The position numbers and the translations under genes were made by a program. 64,000 bases of DNA from Fidelibacterota bacterium (GTDB taxonomy: Bacteria > Pseudomonadota > Alphaproteobacteria > Rhodospirillales > Rhodospirillaceae): the NCBI GenBank assembly GCA_947472795.1, contig CANJBL010000006.1, positions 1 to 64,000 of the forward strand, given 5' to 3'. The first letter of the stretch is position 1. Each line of letters begins with the position of its first letter. Shown piece after piece: positions 33,357 to 57,857 of this stretch. The notes under the pieces were generated by a model. The model ran no database searches. It was given only the letters and a program-made list of their open reading frames with translations, and was not told where the DNA came from.

Positions 33357-33446
33357 GAATCCCTCCTATTTTGAGACGATAATCATAACATGAATTTGTT
33401 ATAGTGACTTCAGGTCTTGGAACTTTGGCGCTGGATGAGGTGTGCG

Positions 33447-33860
33447 ATGGCTGTTTTGCGGATGACAATTCTCGGATTGGGCGCGCTGGCTGTGGCCGGC
33501 ACGGCGCTGGGGGCCATCGACGAAAACGCGGCGGTACCGGTGGACGTGAGCATTATCAGCCAAGGAACGGGGAAGGGCTTTATATTCCAGAACGTCTATG
33601 CTCAGCCGTTCTACATTTACGACAAGGACCAGCCCGGCAAGTCCGCTTGCGTGGATAAATGCGCGGAGGTGTGGATTCCGCTTTATCCCAGCGACCGCAA
33701 TGCGACCGACCTCGGCGATGCGTGGAAGCTCATCGTGCGTACCGACGGCTACAAACAATGGGCCTATAAAGGTAAGCCGCTTTACACCTTCGGCTACGGC
33801 GAGTTGCCGCCGCCGACGGCCAAGGATACGGCGGGCGTCTGGCACAAGCTGGAACCCTGA
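33447..33860 (+). CDS. Secreted PF03640-type repeat protein
   Basis: A 137-residue exported protein (signal LGLGALAVAGTALGAID, cleavage near residue 22). It has two copies of the short beta repeat of the secreted/lipoprotein_15 family: QPFYIYDKDQPGKSACVDKC followed by WIPLYP, then KQWAYKGKPLYTFGYGE. The CxxxC pair (CVDKC) is typical. The family has been linked only loosely to the periplasm and redox stress. ATG at 33447 follows GATGAGG; upstream in-frame starts exist at 33417 and 33435. The same family is found as a 435-residue version at 48976-50283. Confidence 0.8.
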   Translation: MAVLRMTILGLGALAVAGTALGAIDENAAVPVDVSIISQGTGKGFIFQNVYAQPFYIYDKDQPGKSACVDKCAEVWIPLYPSDRNATDLGDAWKLIVRTDGYKQWAYKGKPLYTFGYGELPPPTAKDTAGVWHKLEP

Positions 33861-43870: not shown

Positions 43871-44614
43871 TCAGGGCTTCTTCATGCGCAGCATGAAGCG
43901 GTCGGTTGCGAAATGAGCGCCTGACTCGGAATTGCCACTGACTTTGTTATCTGCCGGATTGCGCAGGACGTTGCCTTCGGCATCGACCTTAAAGCCCACG
44001 GCTGTCAGTTCGCTCTTGGCGATGTCTTCGTCCATGCGGTGGACTTTGGATGTGGCTTCGGCGCCCGCACCCTTTGCGGCAGCATGATCTTCCACATAGA
44101 AGATGCCGCCCGGCTTCAGGTTCTCGAACACCGACTTGTTCAGGCCGGCAACGTTAGCCGTGGGGCCGTTATGAAAGTCGTGATAGTTCTCGGTGGTCCA
44201 GAACAGATCAGCTTTTTCCGGCAGCATCATGGTGCCGAAGTCCACGGTCACGATGGTCACGTTCGGATAGGCGCTGGCCCAGGCCTTCATGCCGTCTAGA
44301 AAGCCGGCGCGTTCAGCCTGCGCCTTGGTGATGAGCGCAAACACCTTGCCCTTGGGGCCGACGGCCTTGGACAGAATTTTCGTGTAGTACCCGCCGCCCG
44401 GACCCAGTTCGGCGACGGTCATGCCGGGCTTCACACCGGCGAAGGCGACGGTTTCAGCAGGCTTGCGGTTGGCATCGCGTTCCTTGTCGGCAGCCGGGCG
44501 GCCAGCGTCGGCGACGGCGGCGCTGATGGCTGCAGGAACGGCGTCGGCAGCATAAATGGCGGTCGTGGATAGAAGCGCAGCCACAAATGCGGCCGCTGCA
44601 AAGGTACGTGTCAT
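43871..44614 (-). CDS. Exported class I methyltransferase-like protein
   Basis: A 247-residue protein with a clear Sec signal (TFAAAAFVAALLSTTAIYA, cleavage near residue 22) and a Rossmann AdoMet-binding fold: motif I VAELGPGGGYYTKILSKAVG, then VFALITKAQAERAGF and FENLKPGGIFYVEDHAA. Methyltransferases are normally cytosolic, but this exported class recurs in proteobacteria; whether it binds AdoMet outside the cytoplasm is unknown. GGGAGGAT precedes the ATG at 44614. The gene is monocistronic. Confidence 0.85.
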   Translation of the reverse strand: MTRTFAAAAFVAALLSTTAIYAADAVPAAISAAVADAGRPAADKERDANRKPAETVAFAGVKPGMTVAELGPGGGYYTKILSKAVGPKGKVFALITKAQAERAGFLDGMKAWASAYPNVTIVTVDFGTMMLPEKADLFWTTENYHDFHNGPTANVAGLNKSVFENLKPGGIFYVEDHAAAKGAGAEATSKVHRMDEDIAKSELTAVGFKVDAEGNVLRNPADNKVSGNSESGAHFATDRFMLRMKKP

Positions 44615-44773
44615 ATTGATATCCTCCCGGGGTGCGTCGGTTGACGGGTGAGAGTCTATCGGTTTGAGGCACCGGCAACAAGCATTCCACCGCTTTGCCT
44701 TCTGTGAAGATTTCGGATATTCCACGGTTTTACGGTCCTGTTACACCGCTGTTGCCTTTGGAGGAGGAGCCGC

Positions 44774-48975: not shown

Positions 48976-50283
48976 CTAGTAGTTGAACAAACCGGCGATG
49001 TGCCAGTAGTAGCCAGCGCCGGTATTGTTCCGACTGCCGGGAATGTCGCCGCCCGTGGGTGCCAGGTCGATTTTGCCTTCGGCATCGCCGTAAACCACAT
49101 CGCTGCGATTGTTGCCTTCGATATCGCCCGGCTTCTTGTCGCCTGCGTAGGCGTAGATAGGCGCGCCCTTATAAAGCCACTGCTTGGTACCGTCGTCACG
49201 TGTCGCTACTTCCCAGAACCCGGAAGAGACGGCATTGGCGGGTGCTACGATGGGATGCCAGGTCTTCAGGCAATCGGCAACGCAGCCGCGCGGACCAATC
49301 CCTTTGGAATCTGAATACAGGTATCGGAAGCCGTCACGCGTGCGTCGCCCGCCGTATTGCAGGTGGTAGCGCGTCTCCGTATAGACTGTCATGCCCTTCT
49401 GATCGGTGAGCAGGGGTCCGCGAATATTATAAACTCCGATCTTCAAAGCCTCGGGCATGAAGTTGCGATAAGCCAGCGCCGGGGCTGCGTCCTTCTCCGC
49501 GAGCACGCCATTGATATCGGTGTCGGAGTAGTCGCCGTTGTACGTGTAGAGGCGCTGTTCCTTATAAGCCCACTGACGCTTACCGCTCTCGGTCTGCATG
49601 ACGGTGAAGTCGGCGAGGGGAACTGCAGCCGCCGGTGCATAAACCGGCGTCCAGTCGGCGGGGTTTTTCGGCGGCGTCTTCAAGACGTATGTCGCCATGC
49701 CCGTGCTGGTGGAGACAAAGCCGTAACCATTGGCGACGCCCAGGCTGTGCAGCTCAACTTCGCCCGGCATCGCTATCGTCTTGGCGGGATTGAAGGCCGC
49801 ACGTTTCCAGCCTTCCTTGGGGATGTACATCTTGCTGCCGGGGTCGAGCCACGCCGGATCTTCCGAACTCAAGTTGCCGCCTGTGGGCTGGCCTGCCGGA
49901 TCTTTGCCAGAATAGCGGTACAGGGGTTGGCCTTGATAGGCCCATTGCTGACTGCCGTCTGGGCGCGTCACGAGAGTCCAGTCGGGCAGCGCCGTAGCCT
50001 TGGCGCCGGCGAGATAGGGCTGGAATTCCTTGGCGCACGCATCGATGCAATTAGCTTGGCCGTTTTCATCCTTATTATATGTGTAGAGGGGTTTGCCGTC
50101 GGCATCGCCCAATCGGCGCCACAGATATTGCTCCGAGGAATTGGAGATATACAGCGTCACATCGACAATGGTGATGCCGGGTGGTGACGTGAGCGGAACA
50201 TTCATCGCCTTGTCGGCGGCACTTGCCGCGTTGGCGGTCAGTGCGAGTACGGCGAAGCTTGCGGTGATCTGGGGCGTGCGCAT
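48976..50283 (-). CDS. Secreted PF03640 repeat protein
   Basis: A 435-residue exported protein (signal ASFAVLALTANAASAADK, cleavage near residue 23) with several copies of the PF03640 beta repeat: KPLYTYNKDENGQANCIDAC, QPLYRYSGKDPAG, QRLYTYNGDYSDTD, TVYTETRYHL, APIYAYAGDKKPG, and two CxxxC pairs (CIDAC, CVADC). The repeats pack into a rigid beta structure, and the paired Cys may form disulphides. Last gene of the four-gene operon; starts 2 bp after the DUF1552 gene. No catalytic motif is visible, so a scaffold or electron-carrier partner role is possible. Confidence 0.82.
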   Translation of the reverse strand: MRTPQITASFAVLALTANAASAADKAMNVPLTSPPGITIVDVTLYISNSSEQYLWRRLGDADGKPLYTYNKDENGQANCIDACAKEFQPYLAGAKATALPDWTLVTRPDGSQQWAYQGQPLYRYSGKDPAGQPTGGNLSSEDPAWLDPGSKMYIPKEGWKRAAFNPAKTIAMPGEVELHSLGVANGYGFVSTSTGMATYVLKTPPKNPADWTPVYAPAAAVPLADFTVMQTESGKRQWAYKEQRLYTYNGDYSDTDINGVLAEKDAAPALAYRNFMPEALKIGVYNIRGPLLTDQKGMTVYTETRYHLQYGGRRTRDGFRYLYSDSKGIGPRGCVADCLKTWHPIVAPANAVSSGFWEVATRDDGTKQWLYKGAPIYAYAGDKKPGDIEGNNRSDVVYGDAEGKIDLAPTGGDIPGSRNNTGAGYYWHIAGLFNY

Positions 50284-50285
50284 GG

Positions 50286-51632
50286 CTAGGCCATTACTTC
50301 TGAAATCGGGCTGGTGACACGGTTAGACCCTACGCCCCACGCGCTGACGGGCACGCCCATGATTTGCTGCACGGTCAGGCCCACGCGGGTGGCTGCGTCG
50401 CCCGGCTTGGGGATATGCATCCCGGTTTTCATGCGGCCGTTGGCGCTGCCGAGCAGAACGAAGGGATAGTTGCGCAAGGAGTGCAGACGCGGTGCGCCGT
50501 GGTCGGTGTAGGCGTAAAGGATCATGCGGTCGAGCAGCGTTTTCTCGCCCTCCTGGATACCGTCCAGCACCGCAGCGTAGTCATGCAGAGCTTGCATGTA
50601 GAGCGCGGTGAACCATGCGCTCTTCACCTGGTAACCCAGAACCGGATCAACCGGCTCTTCGTGAGTATAGGTGTGGTGGTTGGTGGGATCACCTTCACGC
50701 CTGAGGCCCGACATACCTTGCGTGATGCAGAGATTGGCGACGCGCGTTTGGCCGCAGGCCAGTGCATGCGCCAGCAACTCAGCGAACTGGTTGTGGCGTG
50801 CCATGGCTTCCGTCGCGATGTTCAGCGCCTGTTTCTCTTCCTTCTCCGGCTGCTTGGGCTTGGTGCAAGCGGGCAGGGGTTCGGGCTTCTGAAGCTGGAT
50901 ATCCAGCTTCTGTTCCAGCGAACGCAGCGAGGTGAAATAGTTGTCCAGGCGCGCGCGGTCCGTGGCGCCAAGGTTGCGCATCAGATCTTGCCGTTCCTCG
51001 GAAACGCCGGAAAGGACACTGCGGCGGACCATGATCTGCGGATCGGGCGTGAACTCGGCGGCGTTGGGGTCTTTGAACTCAGGGCCGAAGATGCGCGTAT
51101 AGAGCGCCAGCGGCGAGACTTCCGCCGGCTGACGACCGCTGGATGTGCGTGCACTCCAGGAATCGCGCGGATCGCCGTCGCAGGCCACCTCGATGGAGCG
51201 GAAACGCGTGCCGTTGCCGATGACATCACCCACCAGTGCATCGACGCTGCCGTAATATTCGGAACCGCCCGAGACGCGGCCCGTCATGTGCCCTTGCACA
51301 CCTGTGAAGTGCGTATTGTTGCTCTGGCCGTCCAGGAATACTTCACCGCCCGAGAAGAGGTTCATCTTCTTCTGGAAGGGCTTCAGCGGTGCCAGCTGCG
51401 GGGGCAATTCATAGTCGGTGCCGGCGGTCTTGGGGCGGTACTCAGCTTCGCCCAGGCCCAGTGCCCAGAACCAGGTGGCAAAGCGCAGAGGGATCGGTGC
51501 GCCTGTGGCGGCGAAGGCATTGCCGCTTTCGTTCAGCATGCAATCGAGGATCGGCAAACCGACCGTGACGGCGCTGCCGGCCATCATGCCTTTGAGCGCG
51601 CGGCGGCGAGTCATGAGGGATGTGGGTGTCAT
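50286..51632 (-). CDS. DUF1552-family Tat-exported protein
   Basis: A 448-residue protein of the DUF1552 family (DUF1501/sulfatase-like fold clan). The Tat motif is MTRRRALKGMMAGSAV (residues 7-22), so it is exported folded, often with a metal. Characteristic segments are PLRFATWFWALGLGE, NNTHFTGVQGHMTGR, VANLCITQGMSGLRRE and ILYAYTDHGAPRLHSLRNYP. The repeated His residues suggest a metal site. No biochemical role is established. Downstream of and apparently coupled to the DUF1592-type gene (13 bp gap, GGAGAC as Shine-Dalgarno). Confidence 0.88.
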   Translation of the reverse strand: MTPTSLMTRRRALKGMMAGSAVTVGLPILDCMLNESGNAFAATGAPIPLRFATWFWALGLGEAEYRPKTAGTDYELPPQLAPLKPFQKKMNLFSGGEVFLDGQSNNTHFTGVQGHMTGRVSGGSEYYGSVDALVGDVIGNGTRFRSIEVACDGDPRDSWSARTSSGRQPAEVSPLALYTRIFGPEFKDPNAAEFTPDPQIMVRRSVLSGVSEERQDLMRNLGATDRARLDNYFTSLRSLEQKLDIQLQKPEPLPACTKPKQPEKEEKQALNIATEAMARHNQFAELLAHALACGQTRVANLCITQGMSGLRREGDPTNHHTYTHEEPVDPVLGYQVKSAWFTALYMQALHDYAAVLDGIQEGEKTLLDRMILYAYTDHGAPRLHSLRNYPFVLLGSANGRMKTGMHIPKPGDAATRVGLTVQQIMGVPVSAWGVGSNRVTSPISEVMA

Positions 51633-51645
51633 GATGTCTGTCTCC

Positions 51646-53286
51646 TCAAGGCGTCTTCGGTGCGGGCAGGATATAGAGCGCATCGCTCATGGCCACCTGG
51701 CGCATCAGTTCAAGAACGTTGTATTTGCTGTCGGTGAACTTCTTCTGGACCAGCGCGAACTCTGCTTCACCCGGCAGCGGCGCGCGGCCGGCGCCGTAAG
51801 AGAAGACGCGCTTGGCCACACAGGAGGTGAGCGCCGGATCGTCGTGCAGCACCTTGGCGAGGCCCACGGGTCCGTCGAACTTCACACCAGAGAGGTCGCC
51901 ACTGGTGTCGATCTTCGCGCCGTTCTCTTCCGTGCGGTAGCCGCCGGCGGAATCGAAGTTCTCCAGTGCAAGGCCGATGGGATCAGTGATCTTGTGGCAG
52001 CCCGCGCACATGGCCTCCGAACGGTGCGCAGTCAGGCGGTCGCGTGTGGTCTTGTAGACGGGGTTGGATGTGTCCTGCACGAATTTGAAGTCCACATTAC
52101 CCGGCGGGGGTGGAACGGCTTGGCAGAGAATGTTCTCGCGCAAGGCTTTGCCGCGGCCCGTTGGCGATGTGCGGCCCGAGGGCGAATGCAGCGCCACGAA
52201 GCTCGCCTGCGCCAGGATGCCCGCGCGCGGATCGCCCGGCTGATAGCTGTAAGGAATCCAGCGTTCGGGTTGGCCGTTATCGACCAGTTCCACCAGCGGC
52301 ACGTTGTAGAGCGCGGCCAGCGAGCGGGTGAGGAAGGTATTGGGCGTCGTGTAGAGGTCGCGGTAATCGCCCTGACGCTTGACCACGTGGTCAACAATGG
52401 TGCGCAGGGTCTGCTCTTCCGATTGGTCGCGCACTTTCAACGTATAGCGCGGGAAGAAGTTGGGATCCTTGGACAAGGTCTCGAAATCCGAGAAGCCCAG
52501 CATGTCGGAGAAAAAGGCACGCACACCGCCTTCCATGCTGCCAGCGGACACCATGCGGTCGACCTGACGCTTTAATCCATCTTTGGTATGGATGTCGCCG
52601 CTCTCTGCGGCTTTCAACAGAAGATCGTCGGGTGCGGTGTTCCAGAGGAAAGAGGCCAAGGTCGTGGCTTTGGCATAACCCGTCAAACGCATGCTGCCCG
52701 CATGCGCCGGGTCGGGTTCGATGTCGCGTTGGCGGAAAAGGAAGTTGGGCGAGATCAGCATGTCGGCGACGACGGCCGAGATGCCGGCGTAAAAGTCGTG
52801 CAGCGTGTTGGCGGCGTCGCCGGCGGCTTTCACTTTCCGCGAAATCTCCGCGTCGGTGAGCGCGCGACGATAGACGAGGCGTCCGATGCTGGTGACGAAA
52901 GCCCGTGTGCAAGCATCGTCGGCGGCTTTGACATTCTGCGGTGTGCAGGGGATCAACGCGGCACGGTGCTTGGCATCGATCACCTGAGCCGCGACGGTGC
53001 GCGCAAGATCGTCGTAACGTTCAAGGCCCGTGTCGGTGATGCTGACCTTGCGCCCGCCGAGAGCCATCAGGCCTTCGTCGCGCACTTCCGGTTCAAAGCG
53101 GCCCGTGACCTTGATCGACGTGCCGAAGATATCGGCCACGCTCTGCTGATACTGGCTGGGGCTGATGCGAACCGGCGGCGGTGATTCAACCTTGGGCAAG
53201 GCGTCATCAGCGGCGACGTAAACGCCGGGTACGGCAAGCGCGAGCGCGCTTGCCGCCAGGATAAGGGTGCGCTTCATTCTTTTCAC
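51646..53286 (-). CDS. DUF1592/1588/1585/1587/1595 protein with CxxCH
   Basis: A 546-residue secreted protein (signal [20 protein letters not shown]). In order I see DUF1587-like (residues 40-105, [16 protein letters not shown]), DUF1595-like (125-190, [18 protein letters not shown]), DUF1592 (about 205-335, [12 protein letters not shown]), DUF1588 (about 340-440, with [20 protein letters not shown]) and DUF1585 (C-terminal). CAGCHK near residue 420 is a c-type haem attachment motif. The compact five-domain form is shorter than the planctomycete versions. The start is GTG 53286 or ATG 53277. It is the second gene of the operon. Confidence 0.88.
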
Positions 53287-53297
53287 AGGATCTCTAC

Positions 53298-54446
53298 TTA
53301 TTTATCTGCGACTTTTTCGGCGGCGGGTGCCGGCAGGGAGCCCGGCTTGGCAATGATCTTGCCGTCGGTGGTGGCAAGATAAACCGTAGTGGCCTCCATG
53401 CGATAAGCCGTGGAGATCATCTGATTCTGGCCGCTCTTCGGATCGGGATTATAGTCGGCCAGCTTCTTCAGGGCGTGATACATGCCCACCACATCCTCGC
53501 CGTTAATGCCGCCGCGCGCGGTGTACATGTACACAAACTTCTTCCAGTCGGTGTACCCGCCCCAATAGCCGAGCAGCTTGCCGTCTGACTCCTGCTTGAT
53601 GCGCATGTGGGTGTTGGCCAGAGAAATCTCGGTGTAATAGGGCAGCTCGCCCTCGAGATAGAGATTGCCGGAATTGATCCGCAGCTCACCGTCCTTGATC
53701 TCGCCTTGGAAGACGTTGTGCGAGCGCGGGCTGGGATCGATGACGTACGTAGCGTTGGTCATGACATTGCCTGAAGCATCACGCATGAGGTGCTGTACGG
53801 TCTTATCGAACGTGACCGTCACCTTGCCGTCTTTCGACAGATCATCGCCGGTGACCTGGAACGCCCACGCCGGCGCTGAATCGATCATCAGGTGCCACGT
53901 CAGATCTTCGAAGTATGGGATATCTGGAGCCACGGCCTTAAAGGACTCTACGCAGCCCACAGCGCGCCAGAGCTGGTTGTCGACTTTCAGATGCGTCTCG
54001 GGGTCTTCGAACTTTGCGTCGTTGTTCTTGCTGCCGAGGTCGAAACCGAATGCATACTTGCCCGAGGAAAGCTCGATCATCGGATCGGCGACGGCCTCGG
54101 GGTAATTGTAGATGCTGGCCGGTTTGCCGTTCACGCGTGCGCGCGATTCAATCTTCTTCATATACTCAGGGCCAAGCAGCGCATCCTGTGTGGCCATGAT
54201 CTTGACGGCTTCTTCTTCTGTATAGCCAATGGTCATCAGCGCCTTCACGCTGTTGCCGTAGCGGCCCCCGTTTTTATTCTGCGGACAGTTGTTCTTGAAA
54301 TCCTGGCTGTAGGTGGCGGTGGCGAACCAACTCACCACATAGCCGCGTGTCTCGGCGTGGGCCGGTGCGGCAGCAATAGCGCTTGCAACAAGAGCGCCGG
54401 CCGCCAAAACGGAGGATGAGGGGCGCAACATGCGTTTCAGGTTCAT
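53298..54446 (-). CDS. Unknown secreted protein, first gene of DUF1592 operon
   Basis: A 382-residue exported protein with a Sec signal (SSVLAAGALVASAIAAAPAH, cleavage near residue 31). The mature protein has two Cys (NNCPQNK and VGCVESF), a helix with GYTEEEAVKIMATQ, and a long beta-rich middle (VTVTFDKTVQHLM, YYTEISLANTHMRIKQE). A C-terminal stretch MYHALKKLADYNPDPKSGQN is helical. I know no family for it. It stands 11 bp upstream of the DUF1592-type gene and has a good GGGAGA Shine-Dalgarno. Its dedicated place at the head of the operon suggests a role in the same pathway. Confidence 0.8.
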   Translation of the reverse strand: MNLKRMLRPSSSVLAAGALVASAIAAAPAHAETRGYVVSWFATATYSQDFKNNCPQNKNGGRYGNSVKALMTIGYTEEEAVKIMATQDALLGPEYMKKIESRARVNGKPASIYNYPEAVADPMIELSSGKYAFGFDLGSKNNDAKFEDPETHLKVDNQLWRAVGCVESFKAVAPDIPYFEDLTWHLMIDSAPAWAFQVTGDDLSKDGKVTVTFDKTVQHLMRDASGNVMTNATYVIDPSPRSHNVFQGEIKDGELRINSGNLYLEGELPYYTEISLANTHMRIKQESDGKLLGYWGGYTDWKKFVYMYTARGGINGEDVVGMYHALKKLADYNPDPKSGQNQMISTAYRMEATTVYLATTDGKIIAKPGSLPAPAAEKVADK

Positions 54447-54959
54447 GCTTATATATCTCCCTCGCTGGGGCGGCCTTCGGCGGCCCCGGTGCCATGCATG
54501 CTTACATACAAGAGCGTGGCATCCCCCTGAGGTGGACTTACCTTGTGTACGGGCCGCATCCCCCGGCACCGCACTGCTCATAGCCGCACTTTATGTAAGT
54601 GGATCAATATAACAGACGCCACGCGCGACGGTCGATGATGCGGCCTTCACAAAGCTGCTAGGTCAAGAGAACAATTTTAAGATGTAATCTTATATATAAA
54701 TCAATTTAAGTATGTGAATCCAATAGACCATGGCGTGGCATGACCAGGTCTATCTGTGTCTCCGGCGCCACAGCTTGTAATAGACGCACAAAATCACGGG
54801 GATTTTGGTAACGTACTTAGCGCATTTACGGTAAGCGTCGGATGTCCATGGCCTCGGCCATGTGAAGCTACTGCGCGGGCAACCGGGCGAGGGTTTTGCC
54901 TGCGTAATGGGAGAATTATCAGGTCGATCGACCACACCAGTCTCATAAGAGGGGGGAGC
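54447..54959. other. 513-bp divergent regulatory region
   Basis: No gene is convincing here. It lies between the DUF1592 operon and a large TonB receptor, both starting outward. The centre (54660-54720) is AT-rich (GATGTAATCTTATATATAAA). The similar phrases GGTAACGTA (54807) and CGGTAAGCG (54829) may be parts of a direct repeat. This is the best place in the window to look for operators shared by operon and receptor. Confidence 0.5.
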
Positions 54960-57857
54960 ATGCTTTATTTTCGCAATCAAACCACGTCGCGTGCATTAGT
55001 TGTCACCACGGCCGCCAGCATCGTCGCGATGTTGGCCACAATGCCGCACACGGCCTATGCCGCCGATGCGCAAACGGCTCAAGAGCCGCTTGAAGAAATT
55101 ATCATCACTGGTTCGCGCATTGTCCGCGACGGCTACGAAGCCCCAACCCCTGTGACGGTGGTGGGCGCTGAAGAACTGCAAGGTGCGGCCAAGCAGAATC
55201 TCGCCGACGTACTCAATAACCTCCCGGCATTCCAGAACAGTAGCCGCCTCGCTGGCGCCGGCACCACAAACCTTTCGGGCGCGATAGCGGGTTCCAGCTC
55301 GCTGAACCTGCGCGGCCTCGGTGCCGAGCGCACGCTCATCCTGTTCAACGGTCGCCGTCAGCCGCCGTCCTTCGCAACGGGCGTTGTCGATACCGGTCAG
55401 TTCCCCGACGCTCTTGTCACCCGCGTGGACGTGGTGACCGGTGGTGCGTCCGCTGCTTACGGCTCCGACGCCGTCGCCGGCGTGGTGAACTACATTCTCG
55501 ATACCAACTTTACCGGCGTGAAGGGCTCGCTCACGGGTGGTATTACTACCCACGGCGACCGTCGCAACTACAAGGTCACTCTGGCGGCCGGCTTTGGCTT
55601 CGCCAATGACCGCGGCCACGTTTTGCTCAGCGCCGACGATGCTTACTCCGCGCAGTTGCGCGGTTATCAGCGCGACTGGAACACAGTCGGTTTCGTCCGC
55701 ATCGTGAACCCGCAGCGCACCGCCGCTAACGGTCAACCGCAATTGCTGACGCGTTACAACGTCGGCCTCGCCGACACGTACGGCGGCGGCCAGATCACCT
55801 CCGGTCCGCTGAAGGGCATTGCTTTCGGCGCCGGTGGCCAGCCCTTCAACTGGGATTACGGTGATCTTTCTCTGCTCAGCAGCACCTTCCAGGTGGGCGG
55901 CAACTGGAAAGACGGCAACATGCAGGCCATTGCAAGCTTGTCGCCGGTGAACCCCAGCAAGCACATGTTCAACCATGTCAGCTATGACGTGACCGACAAC
56001 ATCCAGCTCTTCGCCGAGTATCAGTTTGCTCAGGCCTATACGTTCTCGTTCTGCTGCTATCAGTACTATCACTCGAATCTGACAGTTCGCACCGACAACG
56101 CCTTCCTGCCGGCATCTGTCGCCGCGCGTGCGACGGCTCTGGGCCTGACCACGCTGCAAATGGGCAAGACTGTGCGCGACCTGCCGGCCTTCGGCGCCGG
56201 CTTCGACCGCATGAGCCATGTCTATGTCGTCGGCGGCAAAGGTAATTTTGACGCCTTCGACAGCAAGTGGACCTGGAACGCCTACGTACAGCGCGGTATC
56301 TCGAAGATCTCCGGTTCTGCGCCCCAGAGCGACATCAACCGTTTTGCTGCCGCTATCGACGCGGTGCGCGCGCCAAACGGGCAGATCGTCTGCCGTAATG
56401 CCGCCACCAACCCCGGTTGCGTGCCTTATAACCTCTTCGGCACAGCCATCCAGGACCGTCCGTTGTCCATTCCCGGCGTCAACAGCCAGGCCGCGCTGGA
56501 CTACATCACCGGCGGCGGCGATCCGTACCTGGGCCAGCGCCTGAAGCGCGATACCGGCAGTTTCGACTTCAACGGCGAGCCGTTCTCCTCGTGGGCCGGT
56601 CCGATGTCGTTGGCGTTGGGTGCCGAATGGCGTCGTGACAGCCTGATCTCGACCTCCGATCCGGGCTCCACCGCGCGTACGCATTACTCCACCAACTTTG
56701 CGTTGCCGTTCACGGCGTCAAATACGGTGGCCGAAGGCTTCGTGGAAACAGTTGTGCCGTTGGCCAAGGGCATGAGCTGGGCTGACTCGTTGGACTTCAA
56801 CGGCGCGGTGCGCATGACCAGCTACAGCACCTCGGGCTTCGTGAAGACGTACAAGGCGGGTTTGACCTATAACCCGATCCCCGACGTGCGATTCCGCGTC
56901 ACGCAATCGCGTGACATTCGCGCTCCGAACCTGAATGAATTGGCCGCTGCTCCGGCGACGGGCCGTTCGACATCGCTCGATCCGTTCTTCAACAACACCA
57001 GCGTTCCGCGTTTCGCGGTTACAGTGGGCAACCCGAACTTGAAGCCGGAAAAAGCCGACACCACCGGCCTCGGAGTTGTCTATCAGCCTAGCTGGTTTGA
57101 AGGTTTCAGCACGTCGGTGGATTACTACCGCATCAACGTGAAGGGCATCATCGCCTCGCTGGACCCGCAGGTCATCCTGAACCTGTGCTACGCGGGCCAG
57201 CAAAACATGTGTGCGCTTGTTACCCGCGATCCGCCATCTGCGGGGCAGACCGTTGGTACGCTTGTGAGCGTTCTGCAGCAGCCTTTGAACCAGAACAGCC
57301 AGCTGGTGAAGGGGCTTGATATTGAAGCCAGCTACCGCAAGCCGTTGTCGGATCTTGTATCCTCATGGGACGGCGACTTCGCATTGCGCTTGGTGGCGAC
57401 CCACACAATCACCGACACTATCAACAGCACGACGATCATCATCAATCGTGCCGGCGATAACGGCGCCGGCGTTCCGGATTGGAGCGCGACATTCTCGGCC
57501 CAGTACAACAACGGTCCGTTCCGCGCGAGCTGGACGAGCCGTTGGATTAGCGCCGGCCATGTCGATAACACCTATATCGAGTGCACCACGGCTTGCCCAG
57601 CGACCATCCCGGCCGGCTTCACGACCATCGACAGCAACCGCGTGAAAGCCAACCTCACGCACGACATTACGCTCACCTACCGCTTCTATCAGGAGGGCAG
57701 CGACAACGCGGAAATGTTCTTGGCTGTGAACAACGTGATGAACCGTATTCCGCCGCTCATCACGCAGTCGGGCAATGCTTACTCCGCGATCACGAACCCG
57801 AACCTCTATGACGTGATCGGCCGCGACTTCAGGCTCGGCATCCGCTTCAAGATGTAA
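54960..57857 (+). CDS. Large TonB-dependent receptor
   Basis: A 965-residue receptor with signal peptide (ALVVTTAASIVAMLATMPHT, ending YAAD), TonB box region LEEIIITGSRIVRDGYEAPT, and plug domain (about 50-170) with LNLRGLGAERTLILFNGRR and GGASAAYGSDAVAGVVNYIL. A long barrel follows, ending GRDFRLGIRFKM. This plug class is widespread in Caulobacterales and xanthomonads; some members import oligopeptides. It starts at 54960 after GGGGGGAG. It is divergent from the DUF1592 operon. A terminator follows directly. Confidence 0.94.
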   Translation: MLYFRNQTTSRALVVTTAASIVAMLATMPHTAYAADAQTAQEPLEEIIITGSRIVRDGYEAPTPVTVVGAEELQGAAKQNLADVLNNLPAFQNSSRLAGAGTTNLSGAIAGSSSLNLRGLGAERTLILFNGRRQPPSFATGVVDTGQFPDALVTRVDVVTGGASAAYGSDAVAGVVNYILDTNFTGVKGSLTGGITTHGDRRNYKVTLAAGFGFANDRGHVLLSADDAYSAQLRGYQRDWNTVGFVRIVNPQRTAANGQPQLLTRYNVGLADTYGGGQITSGPLKGIAFGAGGQPFNWDYGDLSLLSSTFQVGGNWKDGNMQAIASLSPVNPSKHMFNHVSYDVTDNIQLFAEYQFAQAYTFSFCCYQYYHSNLTVRTDNAFLPASVAARATALGLTTLQMGKTVRDLPAFGAGFDRMSHVYVVGGKGNFDAFDSKWTWNAYVQRGISKISGSAPQSDINRFAAAIDAVRAPNGQIVCRNAATNPGCVPYNLFGTAIQDRPLSIPGVNSQAALDYITGGGDPYLGQRLKRDTGSFDFNGEPFSSWAGPMSLALGAEWRRDSLISTSDPGSTARTHYSTNFALPFTASNTVAEGFVETVVPLAKGMSWADSLDFNGAVRMTSYSTSGFVKTYKAGLTYNPIPDVRFRVTQSRDIRAPNLNELAAAPATGRSTSLDPFFNNTSVPRFAVTVGNPNLKPEKADTTGLGVVYQPSWFEGFSTSVDYYRINVKGIIASLDPQVILNLCYAGQQNMCALVTRDPPSAGQTVGTLVSVLQQPLNQNSQLVKGLDIEASYRKPLSDLVSSWDGDFALRLVATHTITDTINSTTIIINRAGDNGAGVPDWSATFSAQYNNGPFRASWTSRWISAGHVDNTYIECTTACPATIPAGFTTIDSNRVKANLTHDITLTYRFYQEGSDNAEMFLAVNNVMNRIPPLITQSGNAYSAITNPNLYDVIGRDFRLGIRFKM

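What the first reader, a model, noticed from the sequence alone, without database searches (positions are those of the whole stretch)
48976..54446. Four-gene exported DUF1592-DUF1552-PF03640 operon with an unknown lead protein
Gaps of 11, 13 and 2 bp join an unrecognised 382-residue secreted protein, a compact five-DUF protein with CxxCH, a Tat-exported DUF1552 protein and a PF03640 repeat protein with CxxxC pairs. DUF1592/DUF1552 proteins are abundant in Planctomycetes and have no proven role; here they form a tidy proteobacterial operon with new partners and a large divergent TonB receptor. A periplasmic redox or lyase system is a reasonable guess.
Basis: partly seen in the sequence, partly recalled or inferred. 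Interest (0 to 1): 0.8.

Follow-up and report, generated by a model that had tools for sequence, protein, structure and literature searches.

The report
Twenty-copy operon with haem-motif protein
A set of four exported proteins of unknown function, one with a haem-binding motif and an unfamiliar predicted shape, is kept together and repeated about twenty times in one small bacterial genome, as if each copy handled a different nutrient.

Summary
The genome (3.2 Mb) holds 20 DUF1592 genes; 15 of 20 stand in the order A (unknown lead) - B (DUF1587/1595/1592/1588/1585) - C (DUF1552, Tat) - D (PF03640), the other five are rearranged. The order recurs as 49 operons in 47 of the 75 loci kept from a scan, from 22 assemblies. 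Over 61 intact operons the four proteins diverge in step (Mantel r 0.81-0.87, 0 of 999 permutations). A and D are the variable pair and also occur without B and C; B-C occur without A-D in a distant relative. TonB receptors are enriched beside the operons; some copies carry ECF sigma/FecR, PQQ dehydrogenase or propeller genes. A is modelled with a beta-barrel, B as helical without a close PDB match. B resembles the uncharacterised X132 domain of Cellvibrio Cbp2D, but LPMO_10 genes are absent from 13 of 13 genomes. Best guess: substrate-specific, TonB-linked periplasmic oxidation modules; substrate and chemistry unknown.

The parts
53298..54446 (-). A, lead protein, 382 aa, signal peptide by eye, no known family; two invariant Cys (C54, C165); model with an up-and-down beta-barrel and helical insertions
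   Evidence: C54 and C165 in 76 of 76
51646..53286 (-). B, 546 aa, DUF1587-DUF1595-DUF1592-DUF1588-DUF1585 (PSD3-PSD5-PSD4-PSCyt3-PSD2), signal peptide by eye, single CxxCH, four further invariant Cys (C114, C126, C388, C489)
51994..52008 (-). CAGCH motif (residues 427-431 of B), candidate c-type haem attachment site
   Evidence: CxxCH present once in 57 of 57 aligned B proteins
50286..51632 (-). C, DUF1552 (PF07586) protein with twin-arginine signal; the ORF can start at 51683; invariant H125, H337, H341, D385 in the numbering of the 465-aa ORF
48976..50283 (-). D, 435 aa, signal peptide by eye, four PF03640 stretches and CxxxC pairs
54756..57857 (+). divergent TonB-dependent receptor (Plug + barrel); the signal-peptide start is probably the ATG at 54960
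   Evidence: start inferred from sequence
54447..54755 (.). intergenic region between A and the receptor ORF, with the only two promoter-like matches of the region (54606-54675)
   Evidence: not above chance

Best explanation
Shown: A-B-C-D is one co-inherited four-gene unit, amplified to about 20 diverged copies in this genome, with export signals, and more often next to TonB receptors than chance gives. Inferred: each copy is the periplasmic part of a scavenging locus for a different class of dissolved organic compound. The TonB receptor brings the compound in. A, a beta-barrel protein, binds it and (with D) sets specificity. B, a haem protein of unfamiliar fold, oxidises or reduces it. C, a Tat-exported His/Asp-rich protein that is probably a metalloenzyme, works on the same substrate or product. 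D, a repeat protein with CxxxC pairs, docks the parts or passes electrons. Electrons would leave through the respiratory chain; PQQ and aldehyde dehydrogenases encoded nearby at some loci would work on the same compounds.
For: Copy number and order: 20 A, 20 B, 21 C, 22 D in the fetched parts; 15 of 20 B in A-B-C-D order. Co-divergence of the four: r 0.81-0.87 over 61 operons, 0 of 999 permutations. Median pairwise identity A 0.37, D 0.35 against B 0.51, C 0.50 in the same 61 operons: variable pair versus conserved pair. A TonB receptor within 5 kb of 17 of 49 operons of the loci; 7 of 30 Plug domains of this genome lie in the 7.0% of it within 5 kb of an operon, P 0.004; weaker co-divergence of receptor and operon on 18 pairs, r 0.40-0.52, 0-3 of 999 permutations. 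A cluster of ECF sigma factors in 6 loci (five checked by Pfam) and of FecR proteins in 5 (two checked). CxxCH in B, CcmH in the genome. Paralogues of different assemblies interleave on the A tree, so diversification is older than these lineages. Recurrent neighbours: NHL-type propeller in 9 loci (7 of the 9 tested match NHL), PQQ dehydrogenase in 4 of 4 tested, one with a cupredoxin domain and one directly after A-B-C-D-TonB in Steroidobacter gossypii, aldehyde dehydrogenase in 4 of 4 tested of 5 loci.
Against: No substrate, enzyme activity or haem has been shown. 32 of 49 operons have no receptor in the held flanks, and in this genome 23 of 30 Plug domains are elsewhere. Neighbouring gene families are mixed: in 219 neighbours no Pfam family matched more than 4 members in either batch. 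The barrel likeness of A stays under Z 8, a level that may mean only a common arrangement. C could not be placed firmly in a metalloenzyme superfamily.
Confidence: 0.42

Rival explanations
1. The operon supplies electrons to secreted polysaccharide-oxidising enzymes (LPMO-type), or cuts polysaccharide itself, as proposed for Cbp2D of Cellvibrio japonicus, whose C-terminal X132 domain carries a CxxCH; DUF1587, the first domain of B, is annotated in Cbp2D.
For: Cbp2D/Cbp2E deletions impair growth on insoluble cellulose and a direct cutting role is proposed (PMC12542752, passages); DUF1587 and two CxxCH domains in Cbp2D (PMC8981238, section 5 and passages); PF08450 lies in the same Teredinibacter protein as X132 (PMC10916295, passages) and NHL/SGL-type propellers are encoded beside some operons here.
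Against: No LPMO_10 gene in 13 of 13 genomes, nine of them of this genus. B matches only the five DUF domains in Pfam and has one CxxCH, so no CBM and no second cytochrome domain was seen. The Teredinibacter results were called inconsistent with LPMO donation. No glycoside hydrolase among the 25 families shown for either neighbour batch (not a full list).
Confidence: 0.12
2. Iron, haem or other metal acquisition: TonB receptor plus ECF sigma/FecR is the classical siderophore arrangement, and B/D would reduce or bind the metal.
For: Best NCBIfam matches of the window's receptor are haem/haemoglobin, B12 and siderophore receptor models, all far below their cut-offs; sigma/FecR neighbours in some loci.
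Against: About 20 diverged copies of a four-gene unit is more than metal uptake normally needs (general knowledge); the haem would be a fixed cofactor of B; neighbours include catabolic dehydrogenases.
Confidence: 0.1
3. Extracellular or periplasmic electron transfer: the operons form an electron conduit rather than substrate-specific enzymes.
For: CxxCH in 57 of 57 B; two or three CxxxC in 54 of 56 D.
Against: Only one haem motif per operon; A and D diverge more than B, which fits recognition of varied ligands better than a common conduit; A-D pairs exist without the haem protein.
Confidence: 0.08
4. The arrays are recent or selfish duplications with no shared function.
For: Some copies are tandem (contigs C13 and C16).
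Against: Copies are old and interleave between assemblies, all 20 B matches lie in open frames without stops, and the four proteins diverge in step.
Confidence: 0.03

Closest known systems
PSCyt3 (DUF1588/DUF1592) proteins and their gene neighbours in Planctomycetes and Verrucomicrobia
   Same: B carries PSCyt3 with PSD domains. PMC5615132 (passages) reports that PSCyt2 and PSCyt3 genes usually stand next to two families of unknown genes and are numerous in some genomes. That the PSCyt3 neighbour is DUF1552 I infer: the search listing counts DUF1552 three times in that record, but the main text shown does not hold the word.
   Different: Here B is compact (about 550 aa) and lacks the N-terminal PSCyt1 domain and the long region between PSD3 and PSD5 seen in the 1425- and 897-aa proteins of genome G225; A and D are added and the four genes form a fixed operon.
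X132 domain of Cellvibrio japonicus Cbp2D and of Teredinibacter TERTU_2913 / TERTU_3803
   Same: One CxxCH, exported protein, DUF1587 annotated in Cbp2D, about the same length (X183 of Cbp2D ends near residue 558 of 1,122, computed); no solved relative of B found, as PMC10916295 says of X132 (passages; its Fig. 1 legend prints DUF1687 at the start of X132, which I take to mean DUF1587).
   Different: B stands alone without CBM, X158, X183 or FN3; no LPMO_10 in 13 genomes. No direct sequence alignment to Cbp2D was made.
Polysaccharide utilisation loci (SusC/SusD type)
   Same: Many diverged copies of one operon type, TonB receptors, some with sigma/FecR-type regulators.
   Different: No SusD and no recurrent glycoside hydrolases seen in the part of the lists shown; instead a haem-motif protein, DUF1552 and PF03640 proteins.
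PF03640 secreted repeat (SCO0930 family)
   Same: D has four PF03640 stretches and a partial match to SCO0930 (78.8 bits, cut-off 275).
   Different: Here D is usually in one operon with A. None of the titles and abstract openings listed is about a function of the family.

Membership tests
DUF1592-type (PSCyt3/PSD) proteins - B | Pfam domains PSD3, PSD5, PSD4, PSCyt3, PSD2 over their cut-offs | tested here: met
   26.0/23, 48.5/34.2, 96.3/23.3, 101.3/27, 35.7/25.8 bits
DUF1592-type (PSCyt3/PSD) proteins - B | one CxxCH, in the PSCyt3 domain | tested here: met
   57 of 57 have exactly one; residues 427-431 lie in the PSCyt3 match 354-454
c-type cytochrome - B | covalent haem | not testable with these tools
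   motif and CcmH present but binding not shown
c-type cytochrome - B | cytochrome c fold around the CxxCH | tested here: inconclusive
   no cytochrome c chain among the rows shown, but residues 226-501 were barely tested by the aligner
X132 domain (CAZy) - B | sequence similarity to Cbp2D residues after X183 | not tested
PF07586 (DUF1552) - C | score over the Pfam cut-off | tested here: met
   148.3 bits, cut-off 30
PF07586 (DUF1552) - C | literal H-x-x-S-H-H motif of the Pfam name | tested here: inconclusive
   H337 and H341 in 93 of 93, but E at 342 in 89 of 93; which profile columns carry the motif was not looked up
Alkaline phosphatase / sulfatase superfamily - C | profile similarity | tested here: inconclusive
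   C versus 12 sulfatases: HHalign probability 61, P 8e-5; A, B, D versus the same: P 0.46-0.65; C versus DUF1501 probability 3 and 18; positive control DUF1501 versus sulfatases only 3.5
Alkaline phosphatase / sulfatase superfamily - C | conserved Asp-His metal ligands in [ST]DHG (recalled) | tested here: inconclusive
   D394 in 81 and H395 in 55 of 93
Avidin / lipocalin / FABP-type barrels - A | fold | tested here: inconclusive
   best Z 7.3 to 7n35_A (91 aligned, 3.2 A), avidins 6.1-7.2, FABP-like chains about 5-6; Foldseek best E 0.066
Polysaccharide utilisation locus | SusD-like partner and glycoside hydrolases | tested here: inconclusive
   none among the first 25 of 110 and of 156 families matched by 219 neighbours; the rest of those lists was not shown
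LPMO redox partner | an LPMO to serve | tested here: not met
   PF03067 in 0 of 13 genomes; other LPMO families not searched

The most novel reading that the evidence does not exclude
The operons are a previously undescribed class of uptake-coupled oxidation loci: a functional counterpart of polysaccharide utilisation loci built around a haem enzyme of new fold and a DUF1552 metalloenzyme, with an interchangeable recognition pair (A and D) that has been tuned about twenty times in one small genome to different dissolved organic compounds. The B-C pair would then be the same enzyme core that Planctomycetes and Verrucomicrobia carry in large numbers, giving those proteins a function.
Probability: 0.3. 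Interest if true: 0.87.

Novelty: new variant of a known kind. Interest (0 to 1): 0.68.

Why it matters
PSCyt/PSD (DUF1592-type) proteins are numerous in some Verrucomicrobia, and the 2017 study whose passages I saw states that nothing is known of their functions (PMC5615132). Here the core is reduced to a compact four-gene unit in a proteobacterial genus and in a named strain (Steroidobacter gossypii S1-65), with defined partners, which makes it far easier to express and delete. If each copy serves one substrate, the family would explain how a bacterium with a small genome uses varied dissolved organic matter. It also bears on the open question of what the X132 part of Cbp2D does.

Tried and rejected
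LPMO electron donation was tested by searching PF03067 in 13 genomes and found in none. A metal-dependent hydrolase identity for C was tested by profile comparison with DUF1501 (29 of 30 loci used) and with sulfatases (12 of 30 loci used); both sets had been filtered on a short active-site motif, the positive control DUF1501 versus sulfatase was weak, and so the suggestive sulfatase match is not claimed. Solved-structure searches by sequence gave nothing for B and D and two chance hits for C at E 0.07 and 1, and a chance hit for A at E 0.12. Foldseek gave no match at E 0.001 for A or B; for B no cytochrome c chain was among the rows, which does not show that the fold is absent. No viral contig with a relative of A was found. 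No 16S gene was found in this assembly, so its class stays open; NCBI titles of the related assemblies disagree (Alphaproteobacteria, Gammaproteobacteria, 'Marinimicrobia'). Neighbourhood families gave no single substrate (219 of 238 filtered neighbours were scanned; 19, 16 from fetched stretches of this genome and 3 from the window, were dropped by me for size).

Paper searches for DUF1592 and DUF1552 together (0 papers), DUF1592 (2), DUF1552 (2), PSCyt/DUF1585/1587/1588/HXXSHH (9), Cbp2D (9), PF03640/COG4315/SCO0930 (14) and DUF1553/1549/1501/PSCyt1/PF07635 (13) listed no paper that, by title and opening of the abstract, is about this four-gene operon; the listed papers were not read through, and most subscription papers are not in that library.
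Full report
What is there. The four genes are as described. A (53298-54446) has a signal peptide by eye and no family in Pfam or NCBIfam. B (51646-53286) has five PSD/PSCyt domains over their cut-offs. C is DUF1552 with a twin-arginine signal: R26 and R27 are kept in 93 of 93 aligned proteins. D has four PF03640 stretches. Gaps are 11, 13 and 2 bases if C starts at 51632.

It is one of about twenty. PF07631 has 20 matches in the genome, all over cut-off and without stops. A six-frame profile table over the fetched regions gives 20 A, 20 B, 21 C, 22 D and 8 TonB receptors; one D is a fragment elsewhere in the window, and one A and one D on contig C9 stand apart from any B. I read that table as follows: 15 of 20 B genes stand in A-B-C-D order, three in B-C-D-A, one in B-C-C-A-D, and one as B-C-D with the nearest A behind another ORF. 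A 22nd DUF1552 gene (contig C8) stands without A, B or D.

Distribution. Among 248 genomes of the order, A is found in 12 and DUF1592 in 12, with 11 in common, this genome included. The A-only genome (G212) has only 57-residue N-terminal matches; the DUF1592-only genome (G225) has 1425- and 897-aa proteins with an N-terminal PSCyt1 domain, next to DUF1552 genes, without A and D on the fetched DNA. All 13 genomes of this genus searched have 6 to 29 DUF1552 genes, none of 8 genomes of other families of the order; in the phylum sample 4 of 249 genomes have any, this one included. A scan of genome contigs found 123 stretches with a relative of A; the best 80 were kept, 75 distinct loci, in 22 assemblies (counted). 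Some are named after lakes or bogs; one is the named strain Steroidobacter gossypii S1-65 (L058), where the order is A-B-C-D-TonB followed by a PQQ dehydrogenase. A-B-C-D also holds in the stretches read from three genomes of two other genera of the family (L208, L209, L210).

One unit. In the 75 loci, 59 of 84 A genes are followed directly by B; median gaps are 4 (A-B), -4 (B-C) and 13 bases (C-D). 49 intact A-B-C-D operons were taken from 47 loci and 12 from this genome by simple ORF calling; the other own copies, hidden by overlapping ORFs, split by stretch ends or rearranged, were not used. Pairwise identity matrices of A, B, C and D correlate at 0.81 to 0.87 over the 61; no permutation of 999 reached this, the highest being 0.13. 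The 12 own copies alone give 0.91 to 0.97, again with 0 of 999, but there permutations reach up to 0.91, so that subset is weaker evidence. Median identities over the 61 are A 0.37, B 0.51, C 0.50, D 0.35.

Two modules. Eight A genes are followed directly by D. On re-reading seven loci with this pair (L060, L065, L077, L083, L097, L123, L124) show no trace of B or C on the held DNA, though L060, L077 and L124 lie near contig ends; in the eighth (L056) B and C stand divergently upstream of A-D. On a FastTree tree of 99 A proteins the A-D arrangement needs 7 changes for 8 rows; shuffled labels give 7.7 on average, so the pairs are scattered over the tree. So A-D and B-C appear separable: B-C in G225 without A-D, A-D here without B-C.

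Surroundings. 17 of 49 operons of the scanned loci have a TonB receptor within 5 kb (no locus had a full 5 kb on both sides). In this genome 7 of 30 Plug domains fall in the 7.0% of the assembly within 5 kb of an operon, P 0.004. Receptor and operon divergence correlate at 0.40 to 0.52 on 18 pairs, looser than within the operon. Recurrent neighbours by similarity cluster, with members checked by Pfam: an NHL-type propeller in 9 loci, this genome included (NHL in 7 of 9 tested, one per locus); ECF sigma factor in 6 loci (5 of 5 tested); FecR in 5 (2 of 2 tested); aldehyde dehydrogenase in 5 (4 of 4 tested); PQQ dehydrogenase in 4 (4 of 4), the one of L116 ending in a cupredoxin domain. A tannase family protein stands in L088. 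A Pfam scan of 219 neighbours found no dominant family: at most four members per family in each batch.

Structure. A: mean pLDDT 91, pTM 0.87. Its best structural neighbours are barrels (Cap15 Z 7.3, avidins 6.1 to 7.2, fatty-acid binding proteins, NanoLuc, phenolic acid decarboxylases), about 100 of 350 residues aligned; Foldseek alone found nothing significant. Z under 8 may mean only a common arrangement. C54 and C165 are invariant (76 of 76), a likely disulfide. B: mean pLDDT 89, pTM 0.88, mostly helical; best Foldseek E 1.4, best Z 5.2, with the middle of the model barely tested. CxxCH is in 57 of 57, and H421 is the only other invariant histidine. PMC10916295 (passages) says of X132 that no structurally or functionally characterised homologue was known to its authors.

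Mechanism. What the evidence shows is a co-inherited, amplified unit with export signals, a conserved core (B, C) and a variable pair (A, D), linked to TonB receptors at a part of its loci. That pattern is what one expects of a substrate-specific scavenging system. The assignments (A binds, B does redox, C is a metalloenzyme, D docks or passes electrons) are inference. LPMO service is unlikely because PF03067 is absent from 13 of 13 genomes. Haem is likely but unproven; CcmH is present.

What is new. DUF1592-type proteins standing next to unknown gene families are in print for Verrucomicrobia (PMC5615132, passages), and X132 is in print for Cellvibrio and Teredinibacter (PMC8981238, section 5 and passages; PMC12542752 and PMC10916295, passages). 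I found no listed paper on the four-gene operon, the A family or its amplification in the searches named under Tried and rejected. That DUF1552 is the Verrucomicrobial partner is recollection and inference.

Noticed in passing
window 33408-33857 (+): A short PF03640 ORF (150 aa, two stretches) resembling part of D, 15 kb from the operon.
   Followed up: partly
window 43871-44725 (-) and L055:15190-15957: Methyltransferase-like proteins with what looks like an export signal, 43% identical over 251 aa, lie near an A-B-C-D operon in both genomes; family judged by eye.
   Followed up: partly
L207:6418-7806 (contig C8 of this genome): A DUF1552 gene without A, B or D neighbours.
   Followed up: no
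L205:2125-6402 and L206:1183-3876 (genome G225): Planctomycete-style 1425- and 897-aa DUF1592 proteins with PSCyt1 beside DUF1552, and in L206 DUF1501, genes in a genome of the same order; transfer or binning error not decided.
   Followed up: partly
L055:1051-15002: TonB receptor, FecR and sigma factor divergent from A-B-C-D-TonB: the fullest regulated version of the locus seen.
   Followed up: partly
L116:4062-6893: PQQ dehydrogenase-like ORF with a C-terminal cupredoxin domain near an A-B-C-D operon.
   Followed up: no
L074:14663-16879, L087:11517-13775 and others: A recurrent protein of about 730-880 aa, with a carboxypeptidase-regulatory-like domain in the member tested, next to the operon (5 loci).
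   Followed up: no
L051:3322-6540: A run of small proteins of 143-178 aa with export-like N-termini, several alike, beside the operon of contig C11; related ones in L044, L063 and L067; no Pfam family for the one tested.
   Followed up: no
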